This document shows positions 55,148 through 58,660 of a DNA stretch of 62,779 nt, one piece after another. Positions within the stretch are counted from its first letter, which is position 1. Each line of letters begins with the position of its first letter. The notes under the pieces were generated by a model, which ran no database searches, was not told where the DNA came from, and was given only the letters and a program-made list of their open reading frames with translations. Position numbers and translations under genes: made by a program. The stretch comes from Acidobacteriota bacterium (GTDB lineage Bacteria; Acidobacteriota; Terriglobia; Terriglobales; Acidobacteriaceae): the NCBI GenBank assembly GCA_019351975.1, contig JABBOG010000020.1:1-62779 (forward strand). Direction: 5' to 3'.

Positions 55148-55291
55148 TGCTTTTGAGCGTAACAAAAGTGCGCGTTGAGGTGGGTTTCGGGCTGCAATCG
55201 GGGGGTGATAGCTCGGTTTCGGGCTACGCAGTTTCAAAGCGAGATCGCACAACTGTTTCGATAATCGCCACCCGATATTTGCTAGACGGAG

Positions 55292-55321
55292 TTGGGAGTC
55301 GCTAGGATGACGGGGTAGATG
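55292..55321 (+). promoter_or_regulatory. Candidate promoter for the suc operon
   Basis: TTGGGA (55292-55297) with TAGATG (55316-55321) at 18 bp. The -10 is weak. It lies about 80 bases before sucC, in the 254-base gap with trpD. Confidence 0.25.
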
Positions 55322-55401
55322 ATGGAGACGTTTGATGCCATCGTAAAAAGCCGCGAGGCGGTGTGAGGGCTGCGAGAGCCTTCGCGAGATTGGGAGCGAG
55401 C

Positions 55402-56574
55402 ATGAAGATCCACGAGTACCAGGCGAAAGAGATTCTGCGGAAGTATGGGGTAGCGGTGCCGGACGGCGAGATGGCGATCTCGATTGAAGAGGCGGACACG
55501 GCGGCGAAGCAGTTGTTCTCGGCGGGGAATGCGGTGGTGGTGGTGAAGGCGCAGATTCATGCGGGCGGGCGTGGGAAGGGCGGCGGTGTGAAGCTGGCCA
55601 AGACGCTGGAGGAGGCTGCGGCTGCGTCGAAGGCTATCTTGGGGATGCAGCTGGTGACGCACCAGACGGGACCGGCGGGGCAGAAGGTGCAGCGGCTGCT
55701 GGTGGAGGCGGGGTCGGCGATTGACCGCGAGCTGTACCTGGGTCTGGTGCTGGATCGGGCGTCGGGGAAGGTGGTGTTTATGGCGTCGCAGGCGGGTGGG
55801 ATGGAGATTGAGGAGGTGGCCCACGATACGCCGGAGAAGATCTATAAGGAGTATGTAGACCCGGCGATTGGGTTTCAGGCATACCAGGCGCGCAAGCTGG
55901 CGTTCAAGCTCGGGCTGCAGCCAGCGCAGATCGGCGAGGCGGTGCGGTTCATGATGGGGCTGTACAAGGCGTTCATCGAGACGGACTCGACGCTGATGGA
56001 GATTAATCCGTTTATTACGACGAAGGATGGGAAGCTGGCGGCGCTGGATTGCAAGATCAACTTCGATGACAATGCGATGTTCCGGCACAAGGACCTGAAG
56101 GAGCTGCGCGATATCAGCGAGGAAGACCCGCTGGAGGTGGAAGCTTCGAAGTATGCGCTGAACTACATCAAGCTGGATGGAAATATTGCGTGCATGGTGA
56201 ATGGCGCGGGGCTGGCGATGGCGACGATGGACATCATCCAGTATGCGGGTGGGTCGGCGGCGAATTTTCTGGATGTTGGGGGTGGGGCGAACCAGGAGCA
56301 GATTGAGAATGCGTTTGGGATTCTGCTGAGCGATAAGAATGTGAAGGCGATCTTCATCAATATCTTCGGCGGCATACTCCGCGTGGATGTGCTGGCTACG
56401 GCTGTTGTGGCTGCGGCGAAGAAGCTGAATGTGCAGCTGCCGATTATTTTGCGGTTGGAAGGCACGAACGTTGAAGAGGGACGGAAGATTATTGCTGAAA
56501 GCGGTCTGAAGGTGCAGATCGGCGCGACGATGAAGGAAGCGGCGGACTTGGCGGTTGCGGCAGCGAAAGGGTAG
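55402..56574 (+). CDS. sucC: Succinyl-CoA synthetase, beta subunit
   Basis: A 390-residue ATP-grasp subunit of the TCA-cycle enzyme that makes ATP or GTP from succinyl-CoA. Evidence: [17 protein letters not shown] at the start, [18 protein letters not shown] (nucleotide loop), [20 protein letters not shown] (metal ligands) and [16 protein letters not shown] with [11 protein letters not shown] at the C-terminal phosphohistidine-interacting domain. GGGAG lies six bases before ATG 55402. The gene is followed after only two bases by the NucS-like gene rather than by sucD. Confidence 0.97.
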
Positions 56575-56576
56575 AA

Positions 56577-57338
56577 ATGTCGCGATCTGGCATCTCCGAA
56601 AATACCCCGGCGTTCGCTATTGAAGAAGCGTTTCGGGCTTTAGGCGGCTCTCAAAAGAGTGCGACAGTCACAGCTTGGGTAAACAGCCGTTACCCCGGTA
56701 GATGGACAGATCGCATCATTGGCCAATACCTACGCGGTTGCTCTGTGAACCAGGCAACTGCGATTCGCCACCATCCCGACTTTCCGCGATTCTTATTTTG
56801 TAAAGGTCGAGGTGAATTTCAGATCTATGATCCATCGATCCACGGCACATATGATCCTCGTGGGTATCCAGAAGGTGAAGGCCCTTCGTCTTCATCCGTA
56901 GGTGACGAACTCAGGCAAGAGATCGCGGAACAGATTGAGCAGCGCGTAGGCACAGAGTTCGCTTATGAGGCCCACCTGCGTGACTATCTGGCAAAGAATC
57001 TGTCCTTGCTGGAAAATGGTTTAGTTCTTTGGAGTGGAAAAGAGGAATCGGCAGTTGAGTACCAGTTAGAAGGACGGCGGATCGACATCCTTGCGAAAGA
57101 TAAAGATGGCATTCCCGTTGTAATTGAACTCAAGCTCAGCAAGGGGCATGAGCGCACGATAGGGCAGGCTCTTTTTTATCGTGCCAAGCTCAAGCAGCTC
57201 CTGGCATTGCAAAGAGTTCGAATAATCATGGTTGCGGCAGAGATTACGGATGAACTCAAGATGGCCTCGGGTGAGGTGCCTGATGTCGATCTCTTTCAAT
57301 ATTCACTCACGATGAAAGTCGATCGTGTAGAGAACTGA
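56577..57338 (+). CDS. NucS/DUF91-like PD-(D/E)XK nuclease with N-terminal winged-helix-like domain
   Basis: A 253-residue protein between sucC and sucD. Residues about 10-105 resemble a small winged-helix domain (SATVTAWVNSRYPGRW, IIGQYLRGCSVNQATAIRHH). Residues about 125-250 match the NucS/DUF91 nuclease domain: FAYEAHLRDYLAKNLSLLE, then RRIDILAKDKDG and PVVIELKLSKGHERTIGQAL, which supply the D...E-x-K catalytic residues (Asp and Glu-Leu-Lys) of the PD-(D/E)XK fold. NucS proteins cut mismatched or branched DNA. It lies two bases after sucC, 21 before sucD, and is lower in GC than both, so it looks recently inserted in the operon. Expression would be constitutive with sucCD. Confidence 0.8.
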   Translation: MSRSGISENTPAFAIEEAFRALGGSQKSATVTAWVNSRYPGRWTDRIIGQYLRGCSVNQATAIRHHPDFPRFLFCKGRGEFQIYDPSIHGTYDPRGYPEGEGPSSSSVGDELRQEIAEQIEQRVGTEFAYEAHLRDYLAKNLSLLENGLVLWSGKEESAVEYQLEGRRIDILAKDKDGIPVVIELKLSKGHERTIGQALFYRAKLKQLLALQRVRIIMVAAEITDELKMASGEVPDVDLFQYSLTMKVDRVEN

Positions 57339-57359
57339 TTACGAAGTGAGGAGAGTGCG

Positions 57360-58247
57360 ATGGCAGTATTGGTTGGTAAGGAAACGCGGTTGATTGTGCA
57401 GGGGATTACGGGGCGTGAGGGAACGTTCCATGCCAAGGGTTGCGATGAATATGCCAAGCAGTTTGGCAACACGCTGGTAGTGGGGGGCGTGACGCCGGGT
57501 AAAGGCGGGACCACGCATGAGGGCTGGCCGGTGTTCAACACGGTGGAAGAGGCTGTGGCTGCGACGGGCGCGAACGCGACGGTGATCTTTGTGCCGCCGC
57601 CGGCGGCGGCGGATGGGATTCTGGAGGCGACGGCGGCGGGAGTCCCGCTGATCGTTTGCATCACCGAAGGCATACCGGTGCTGGACATGGTGAAGGTGTG
57701 GGAGGTGGTGAAGGATTCGAAGTCGCGGCTGATCGGGCCGAACTGCCCGGGAGTGATTTCGCCGGGGAAGGCGAAGATTGGGATTATGCCGGGGCGGATT
57801 CATAAGGAAGGCTCGGTGGGGATTGTGTCGAAGTCGGGGACGCTGACGTATGAGGCGGTGTACCAGTTGACGCAGCGTGGCATCGGGCAATCGACGGCAA
57901 TCGGCATCGGTGGCGACCCCATCATCGGGACGACGCATATTGACGCGCTGCGGCTGCTGAATGACGACCCGGATACCGAGGCGATCATCATGATTGGCGA
58001 GATCGGCGGAAGCGCCGAGGAGGCTGCGGCGGAGTTTATCAAGCAGCATGTGAAGAAGCCGGTGGTCGGGTTTATTGCGGGGCAGACGGCGCCTCCGGGA
58101 CGGCGGATGGGACATGCGGGCGCGATTATTTCGGGCGGCGAAGGGACGGCGGAGAGCAAGATGGCGGCGATGAGTGCGGCGGGGATTCACGTTGTGAAGT
58201 CGCCGGCGGAGATTGGGGATGCGATGGCGGGGTTGTTGGGGAGGTAG
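57360..58247 (+). CDS. sucD: Succinyl-CoA synthetase, alpha subunit
   Basis: A 295-residue subunit carrying the phosphorylated histidine. Evidence: [15 protein letters not shown] near the start (CoA-binding Rossmann domain), [22 protein letters not shown], and [20 protein letters not shown] with the active histidine near residue 246. It normally follows sucC directly; here the NucS-like gene intervenes, and a clear own promoter in the 21-base gap is not possible, so co-transcription is expected. Confidence 0.97.
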
Positions 58248-58308
58248 CGGCGGAATGCGCGCGGGTGACTGAGAGGGTTAGGGCGGTTTGCCGGGGTGAA
58301 GCGTGTGG

Positions 58309-58344
58309 CGGGTCCTTCGACTCGCTGCGCTCGCTCAGGATGAC
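58309..58344. repeat. Family C repeat after sucD
   Basis: GGTCCTTCGACTCGCTGCG, CTCGCTC and AGGATGAC: the variant of family C with an inner CGCTGCGCTCGC dyad. It begins the 440-base gene-free repeat cluster 58248-58687. Confidence 0.6.
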
Positions 58345-58408
58345 GGGCTGGTGGTGAGGCTGGGTTTGGCGGGGTCGTTGTGATGTGAAGTGCGGAGGGT
58401 TGTGGAAA

Positions 58409-58441
58409 CCCATGTCTCAGAGGCGAGACATGGGGCACCCG
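58409..58441. repeat. Palindromic repeat, family B, copy 2
   Basis: Stem CCCATGTCTC (58409-58418) / GAGACATGGG (58425-58434) around AGAGGC, then GCACCCGG. It pairs perfectly, with one compensatory base-pair change from the copy at 6642-6675. Confidence 0.8.
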
Positions 58442-58456
58442 GAGTGGTGCGGGTGC

Positions 58457-58660
58457 GAGAAGCGGATTCCCTGCGGGAATGACAGCAAGAAAGGCAAAAG
58501 CAAAGGCAGGTCCTCCGCTGGGGGGTGAAGGATGACAATTTTGAGGAGCTAAGGAGAAGCAGATTCCCTGCGGGAATGACAGCAAGAAAGGCAAAAGCAA
58601 AAGCAGGTCCTCCGCTGGGGGGGGTGAGAGCAGGTTCTCTGCTGGGGGTGAAGGATGACA
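58457..58660. repeat. Tandem composite repeat, about 97-bp period
   Basis: Two units: 58457-58537 and 58554-58660. Each has GAGAAGC, a hairpin ATTCCC-tgc-GGGAAT, GACAGCAAGAAAGGC, and the family C core CAGGTCCTCCGCTGGGG. The second unit carries an internal partial duplication (CAGGTTCTCTGCTGGGGG) before AAGGATGACA. No coding potential; the cluster probably grew by local duplication. Confidence 0.8.

What the first reader, a model, noticed from the sequence alone, without database searches (positions are those of the whole stretch)
56577..57338. NucS-like nuclease gene wedged inside the sucC-sucD operon
The gene starts two bases after sucC and ends 21 bases before sucD, is lower in GC than both, and has a DNA-binding-like N-terminal domain joined to a D/E-x-K nuclease. 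Core TCA genes would give it steady expression. It could be a repair or phage-defence gene using the operon as a safe site.
Basis: partly seen in the sequence, partly recalled or inferred. Interest (0 to 1): 0.7.

Follow-up and report, generated by a model that had tools for sequence, protein, structure and literature searches.

The report
Nuclease gene lodged inside sucC-sucD operon
One bacterium carries a mobile-looking DNA-cutting gene squeezed between two core energy-metabolism genes, at a junction that in its relatives is either empty or filled with unrelated genes, which suggests that core operons here serve as parking places for travelling genes.

Summary
The protein is a winged-helix-like head joined to a NucS/EndoMS-type catalytic domain with D170/E184/K186/Q197/Y201 intact. 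It is not EndoMS: the NucS N-terminal domain is missing, NCBIfam cut-offs are missed, the host has MutS. Two-domain relatives occur on conjugative plasmids and in viral contigs. Of 125 measured sucC-sucD junctions only this one holds the gene: 76 are empty (<=40 bp), 24 exceed 300 bp, most with other cargo such as GIY-YIG, 23S-IVP, FAD-monooxygenase or SRPBCC genes. So it is a recent arrival in an interchangeable-cargo junction. Control: trpB-trpA is also invaded, atp junctions are not. Some other NucS_C genes of the family also sit in core operons (zwf-pgl, lpd-lipB, after icd-mdh) or RM loci. Best reading: a single-gene DNA-reading nuclease of the mobile/defence pool, expressed from sucCD. 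Activity is untested.

The parts
55402..56574 (+). sucC (succinyl-CoA ligase beta subunit, 390 aa); ends ...AAKG-stop, whereas the six empty genus loci end ...AAKGVN/VK-stop
   Evidence: Pfam; comparison of gene ends
56565..56571 (+). GAAAGGG in the last sucC codons, purine-rich and Shine-Dalgarno-like, 5 nt before the nuclease ATG
   Evidence: sequence; function inferred
56577..57338 (+). NucS_C nuclease gene, 253 aa
56607..56831 (+). winged-helix-like N-terminal domain (residues about 11-85; sub-threshold DUF7669 match)
56967..57311 (+). NucS/EndoMS-type PD-(D/E)XK catalytic domain (residues about 131-245), D170, E184, K186, Q197, Y201
57339..57359 (+). 21-base spacer with GAGGAG, Shine-Dalgarno-like, before sucD
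   Evidence: sequence; function inferred
57360..58247 (+). sucD (succinyl-CoA ligase alpha subunit, 295 aa)
   Evidence: Pfam

Best explanation
The gene is a horizontally acquired, single-gene, two-domain DNA nuclease (winged-helix-like reading head plus NucS-type PD-(D/E)XK cutter) from a pool carried by plasmids, phages and RM loci. It replaced the short sucC-sucD junction in this lineage. It is translated from the sucCD message, starting 2 bases after sucC behind a purine-rich stretch in the last sucC codons, so it is made steadily without a promoter of its own. Its most likely job is to cut foreign DNA recognised by the head domain (defence, or competition between mobile elements). Shown: position, domains, catalytic residues, patchiness, empty/occupied junctions, relatives on mobile DNA. 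Inferred: transcription with sucCD, translation start signal, nuclease activity, target, benefit.
For: Catalytic domain: 2vld Z 17.1, 1.7 A over 108 residues; 5gke Z 16.7; catalytic residues invariant in the 5 proteins of A1 and the 9 of A2, window included in both. Patchy: 14 of 250 family genomes match at E<=1e-5, window included, and no match in the other 13 reaches the head. Only copy in its genome. 7 plasmid records match over >=80% of the query (two are the same strain), one beside an abortive-infection family gene, one beside a DNA methyltransferase gene. 9 of 10 viral-contig loci carry the two-domain protein (L226 and L227 encode the same letters); of the two contexts examined, L230 lies by HNH, terminase, portal and protease genes and L225 about 4 kb from a tape-measure gene. 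A NucS_C relative lies between a putative hsdS and hsdR, another near an hsdR-like gene; one is an EVE-NucS_C fusion. PADLOC candidate-defence profiles PDC-S02/S11 match the catalytic part. Junction empty in 76 of 125. No promoter-like or same-strand terminator-like site in 55200-58600.
Against: No activity or expression data. No methyltransferase beside it. The PADLOC match covers only the catalytic half and those profiles are candidates. Two Cupriavidus plasmid relatives sit between an error-prone polymerase (imuA too in one) and LigD/Ku genes, which fits repair as well as defence; two other plasmid contexts show only hypothetical or unknown-function neighbours. No match in 50,697 phage records by tblastn at E<=1e-3. 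Relatives found within the family share only the catalytic half. The promoter and terminator scans found about what shuffles give, so they say little.
Confidence: 0.55

Rival explanations
1. DNA-repair nuclease: an EndoMS-like or damage-specific enzyme recruited for genome maintenance.
For: The catalytic domain is closest to NucS/EndoMS; two plasmid relatives lie in cassettes with error-prone polymerase and LigD/Ku genes; one family relative (G130) has ruvB two genes downstream.
Against: No NucS N-terminal domain match, NCBIfam NucS cut-offs are missed widely (48 of 216 bits), the genome has MutS1, and a repair gene would not be expected to be this patchy.
Confidence: 0.2
2. Selfish freestanding homing-type nuclease: it cuts alleles that lack it at the junction and is copied in by repair, like T4 Seg/Mob genes (analogy recalled).
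For: Two unrelated nuclease superfamilies use the junction in one genus (NucS_C in the window; GIY-YIG in L021, L027, L030); in G236 a NucS_C unit replaced the zwf-pgl spacer, with a close empty sister; a phage relative sits just before an HNH gene and the terminase.
Against: Non-nuclease cargo uses the same junction; 0 of 124 other junctions carry this gene; relatives sit beside unrelated flanks, so no common target is seen.
Confidence: 0.1
3. Bystander: selection merely tolerates insertions at this junction; the nuclease has no maintained function.
For: Junctions vary widely, cargo remnants exist (L087, L036), trpB-trpA is also invaded, and a family relative after mdh has an internal stop.
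Against: The window gene is intact with its catalytic residues, and two-domain relatives conserve both halves across phyla.
Confidence: 0.15

Closest known systems
EndoMS/NucS (P. abyssi 2VLD, 5GKE EndoMS; paper PMC5290159, passages read)
   Same: C-terminal RecB-like catalytic domain and the D/E/K residues. The paper itself notes that the NucS C-terminal region occurs in other domain architectures.
   Different: N-terminal NucS DNA-binding domain replaced by a winged-helix-like head; host keeps MutS.
'Endonuclease NucS domain-containing proteins' on plasmids (Caballeronia, Burkholderia G4, Cupriavidus, Hydrogenophaga, P. aeruginosa)
   Same: Two-domain layout over 86-99% of the query at 29-35% identity; the head alone finds four of these records at 35-42%.
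   Different: On plasmids, not inside a core operon; function not described in the records.
EVE-NucS_C and other variable-head NucS_C proteins of the same family
   Same: Homologous cutter with a swapped head.
   Different: Heads gave no match to the one here in the scans run.
PADLOC PDC-S02 / PDC-S11 candidate defence genes (guilt-by-embedding candidates, PMC10855318, passages read)
   Same: Cutter half matches, E 7e-10 and 1e-8.
   Different: Head half not matched; candidates only.
COG5482 PD-(D/E)XK nucleases with a predicted winged helix-turn-helix (PMC1189080, passage read)
   Same: A nuclease of this superfamily joined to a predicted winged-helix domain.
   Different: The winged helix is C-terminal there, and it is another family; not compared here by sequence.
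Freestanding homing endonucleases (recalled)
   Same: Single nuclease gene between conserved genes with empty alleles in relatives.
   Different: No repeat occupancy by the same gene and no cleavage shown.

Membership tests
EndoMS/NucS mismatch endonuclease | C-terminal catalytic domain with D, E, K (2VLD positions 160, 174, 176 in the alignment; their catalytic role recalled) | tested here: met
EndoMS/NucS mismatch endonuclease | N-terminal NucS DNA-binding domain | tested here: not met
   residues 1-125 give no NucS match in the Pfam and NCBIfam scans, and the aligned range to 2vld and 5gke is 127-246 only; the model head resembles winged helices with middling Z
EndoMS/NucS mismatch endonuclease | passes the curated NCBIfam NucS equivalog cut-off | tested here: not met
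   48 of 216 and 24 of 252 bits
EndoMS/NucS mismatch endonuclease | host lacks MutS | tested here: not met
   MutS1 above cut-off in the own genome; usual, not absolute, in the family (PMC5290159 passages)
EndoMS/NucS mismatch endonuclease | cleaves mismatched dsDNA | not testable with these tools
   needs enzyme assay
NucS_C (PF01939) PD-(D/E)XK nuclease domain | passes Pfam gathering score | tested here: met
   39.3 against 24 bits
Winged-helix-headed NucS_C plasmid/phage group | match over both domains | tested here: met
DUF7669 | passes Pfam gathering score | tested here: not met
   17.2 of 23 bits with the head alone
Restriction-modification system | cognate methyltransferase beside the nuclease | tested here: not met
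   neighbours are sucC and sucD; the rest of the genome was not searched for one
PDC-S02 candidate defence gene | whole-length match | tested here: inconclusive
   profile 169-305 of 308 matched; no curated cut-off given
Freestanding homing endonuclease | empty and occupied alleles at one site | tested here: met
Freestanding homing endonuclease | same gene recurs at the site in relatives | tested here: not met
   1 of 125 junctions
Freestanding homing endonuclease | cuts the empty allele | not testable with these tools
   needs assay

The most novel reading that the evidence does not exclude
In this clade, junctions inside central-metabolism operons (sucC-sucD, zwf-pgl, lpd-lipB, icd-mdh) are a recurrent habitat for single-gene nucleases. 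NucS_C and GIY-YIG genes swap themselves in place of the intergenic spacer, by a homing-like or illegitimate gene-for-spacer exchange, and are kept because they are co-expressed with genes the cell cannot lose: a distributed, operon-lodged form of defence or selfish nuclease instead of a defence island.
Probability: 0.15. Interest if true: 0.8.

Novelty: new variant of a known kind. Interest (0 to 1): 0.52.

Why it matters
Defence and mobile genes are usually sought in islands, prophages and plasmids. Here single accessory genes sit inside core operons, at a junction that holds unrelated cargo in close relatives. Searches based on island context would miss them, and it raises a testable question of how genes enter and leave a tight core junction without breaking it. 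For the nuclease, a NucS cutter with a swapped reading head gives a concrete enzyme to test against phage, plasmid and mismatched DNA.

Tried and rejected
NucS/EndoMS proper: rejected on missing N-terminal domain and missed cut-offs. sucC-sucD as a unique hotspot: weakened by my own control. trpB-trpA is 298-680 bp in 6 of 22 measured genus loci; in 4 of these 6 a co-directional ORF of 112-137 aa spans most of the gap (coding not proven; L216 also has a 127-aa ORF on the other strand), L200 has no convincing ORF, and L205 is unresolved because its trpA match starts at residue 96. trpF-trpB gaps were long too in some loci, without a clear co-directional gene. 80 of 81 measured atp junctions are <=109 bp, and the one long value (L190, 301 bp) belongs to an atpA with an in-frame stop. 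Inverted repeats as the vehicle of the nuclease: tested and absent at the window gene (54 of 100 shuffles at least as strong). Old resident gene: rejected on composition and absence elsewhere.

Enrichment next to central carbon genes: 7 of 15 NucS_C loci of the family against 2 of 30 IVP loci as control (30 of the 52 IVP matches were held as loci), Fisher p 0.003. The gene panel was built from the NucS_C neighbours themselves, so it is biased towards a positive; one of the two control hits is sucCD itself and the other a 33-41% identical Icd-like protein; two of the seven are convergent neighbours, not operon members; the isocitrate-lyase-like, malate-synthase-like and PdhA-like neighbours fall below NCBIfam cut-offs. 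Treat as a lead.

The genome-contig scan with the single protein found only three remote catalytic-domain relatives. Phage records gave no match. Phylum search: 7 of 297 genomes at E<=1e-8, window included. Papers: searches listed no paper that, by title and start of abstract, describes this junction or a NucS_C protein with a winged-helix head; one search returned nothing. Passages were read of PMC5290159, PMC13391042 (its only hit, DUF913, is irrelevant), PMC1189080 and PMC10855318, and the outline with abstract of PMC4990558. The other listed papers were not opened, and most subscription papers are not held.

The 125 junctions are 25 of 27 fetched genus loci plus 100 family genomes outside the genus, picked mainly from the top of a capped SucD similarity list, not at random. 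The tree is FastTree on SucC (37 of 121 inner branches starred) and counts changes, not gains. L120 (2031-bp gap) stayed unresolved. Only two of ten viral contigs and six of eleven plasmid records were looked at for context.

Full report
Observation. The ORF 56577-57338 (+) encodes 253 aa, begins 2 bases after the sucC stop and ends 21 bases before sucD. Flanking genes are SucC and SucD by Pfam. GC is 0.503 against 0.594 and 0.628; GC3 0.49 is the lowest of 36 non-overlapping ORFs of >=200 aa in the window.

The protein. Pfam finds NucS_C at 131-227 (E 7e-10, above cut-off) and only a sub-threshold DUF7669 at 15-82. NCBIfam NucS equivalogs are hit far below cut-off. The PDB sequence search finds P. 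abyssi NucS only (E 0.0096), with D170/E184/K186 aligned to D160/E174/K176 of 2vld. An AlphaFold2 model from nine sequences (mean pLDDT 75.5; linker 95-125 under 50) matches the NucS/EndoMS catalytic domain over about 130-245 (2vld Z 17.1, 1.7 A, 108 residues; 5gke Z 16.7). The head matches winged-helix proteins with middling scores (4mtd Z 8.2, 6la9 Z 7.3, 2ma3 Z 7.2), so 'winged-helix-like' is all I claim. D170, E184, K186, Q197 and Y201 are invariant in both alignments made. No NucS N-terminal domain was found. A 2017 paper (PMC5290159, passages read) already reports that the NucS C-terminal region occurs in other architectures, and another (PMC1189080, passage read) predicts a winged helix on a different nuclease family of the superfamily, so the combination is known in kind.

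Where relatives live. In plasmids 11 records match and 7 cover at least 80% of the query; the head alone finds four betaproteobacterial records at 35-42% identity. Of six plasmid contexts looked at, one has an abortive-infection family gene beside the nuclease, one a DNA methyltransferase gene, two Cupriavidus plasmids an error-prone polymerase and NHEJ genes, and two only hypothetical or unknown-function neighbours. In viral contigs 10 loci were found, 9 with the two-domain protein. Of two contexts looked at, L230 has terminase, portal, head-protease, HNH and replication genes around the nuclease, and L225 a tape-measure gene about 4 kb away. In 50,697 phage records there was no match. In the family's genomes 14 of 250 match at E<=1e-5 (window included), and the other 13 match only in the cutter half; heads differ, one being an EVE domain. 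This looks like a cutter with exchangeable heads in the mobile pool.

The site. SucC was found in 27 of 28 genus genomes and SucD in 225 of 250 family genomes. I fetched 27 genus loci and 100 loci of other genera and measured the sucC-sucD gap in 125 of 127. It is <=40 bp in 76, 41-150 in 14, 151-300 in 11, 301-900 in 18 and >900 in 6. Within the genus 10 of 25 exceed 300 bp. Cargo in the 24 long gaps: this nuclease (1); GIY-YIG genes (3; L030 above Pfam cut-off, the other two by homology to it); 23S-rRNA intervening-sequence proteins, IVP (12, one partial); FAD-binding monooxygenases (4, besides L031 at a contig edge); an SRPBCC protein (1, with a remnant in L087, gap 224 bp); two unnamed proteins of 208 and 373 aa; and L120, unresolved. 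The recognised cargo ORFs lie in the direction of the operon. On a SucC tree long (>300 bp) versus empty (<=60 bp) junctions need at least 19 changes over 106 rows (24 if cargo kinds are told apart). The nearest relatives of the window carry a 267-bp spacer (L020) and a GIY-YIG gene (L021). The six empty genus loci end sucC with ...AAKGVN or VK, overlapping or abutting the sucD ATG; the window and several other occupied loci end ...AAKG-stop.

Controls. In the same genus 80 of 81 measured atp junctions are <=109 bp. trpB-trpA is 298 bp or more in 6 of 22, with a plausible co-directional ORF in 4. So invasion of core operons is a wider habit in this clade, and sucC-sucD is one prominent case, not a unique one.

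A second NucS_C insertion. G236 of the same genus carries a different NucS_C gene between zwf and pgl (gap 814 bp), while the other 23 measured zwf-pgl gaps are 18-247 bp. Its sister G158 (Zwf protein 99% identical) has 173 bp. DNA identity of about 94% runs to the end of zwf and resumes 24 bases before pgl; the insert stands in place of the old spacer, of which sister and cousin share a part. Other NucS_C genes of the family lie after lpd and before lipB and a PdhA-like gene (G224), after icd-mdh (G237, with an internal stop), after scoB (G181), convergent with a sucB gene (G027) or with an isocitrate-lyase-like gene (G163), between a putative hsdS and hsdR (G021), near an hsdR-like gene (G188), near recombinase-like genes below their cut-offs (G238, G050), beside metX (G114), two genes before ruvB (G130), or beside unnamed genes (G109, second locus of G027). 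Counting adjacency, 7 of 15 are beside central carbon genes against 2 of 30 IVP loci, with the bias noted under Tried and rejected.

How it most likely works. Transcription should come from the suc promoter: no sigma-70-like site or same-strand terminator was seen in 55200-58600, though such scans are weak and shuffles expect only one or two. Translation likely starts from the purine-rich GAAAGGG in the last sucC codons, while sucD has its own GAGGAG: inferred. The head would read DNA and the NucS-type cutter would cut it. Because the gene is patchy, on plasmids and in phage contigs, and some relatives lie near RM or abortive-infection genes, foreign DNA is the likeliest target. The host keeps MutS1, so an EndoMS role is unneeded. 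None of this was assayed.

Verdict. The finding is real and its positional claim correct; the defence reading is plausible (0.55 for a defence or element-competition nuclease acquired horizontally). The protein is a new variant of a known kind. What merits attention is the site: a core TCA junction with interchangeable single-gene cargo, and a second, apparently recent nuclease-for-spacer swap at zwf-pgl.

Noticed in passing
L023, L034, L046, L063, L084, L093, L094, L096, L097, L102 (sucC-sucD junctions): IVP (PF05635) genes at sucC-sucD are flanked by strong inverted repeats: arms pair better than all 100 shuffles in 10 of 12 loci (L033 not evaluable, L121 8 of 100), while none of the 11 loci with other cargo does. 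It looks like the stem of 23S rRNA intervening sequences, whose excision by RNase III is reported for Coxiella (PMC4990558, abstract), but placed in an mRNA operon. Shuffles were mononucleotide.
   Followed up: partly
L234-L263: PF05635 genes are present in 19 of 28 genus genomes at E<=1e-10, up to 7 copies each (none in the window's genome); 12 of 30 examined loci have inverted repeats stronger than all 60 shuffles, though in at least 5 of the 30 the script did not locate the gene. They may be a mobile stem-loop unit.
   Followed up: partly
L201, L203, L207, L216: trpB-trpA junctions interrupted by single co-directional ORFs, two of them (L203, L207) alike by eye.
   Followed up: partly
L151:4290-9491: A NucS_C gene sits between a putative hsdS (no NCBIfam match) and hsdR in a type I RM operon; L162 looks similar on its upstream side by eye.
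   Followed up: no
L277 against L274: Close sister genomes with and without a NucS_C gene between zwf and pgl: a clean natural pair in which the insert stands in place of the spacer.
   Followed up: yes
L025, L029, L031, L042, L050: FAD-binding monooxygenase genes of one family, gap GC about 0.59-0.61 like the host, at sucC-sucD in several lineages: apparently older or better ameliorated cargo.
   Followed up: no
L011 / L155: An EVE-like NucS_C gene after mdh carries one in-frame TGA, so it looks like a decaying copy.
   Followed up: no
L051, L062, L020: Some 117-267 bp sucC-sucD spacers contain repeat-like hairpin sequences (GGGGCTAAAGCCCC and similar), seen by eye.
   Followed up: no
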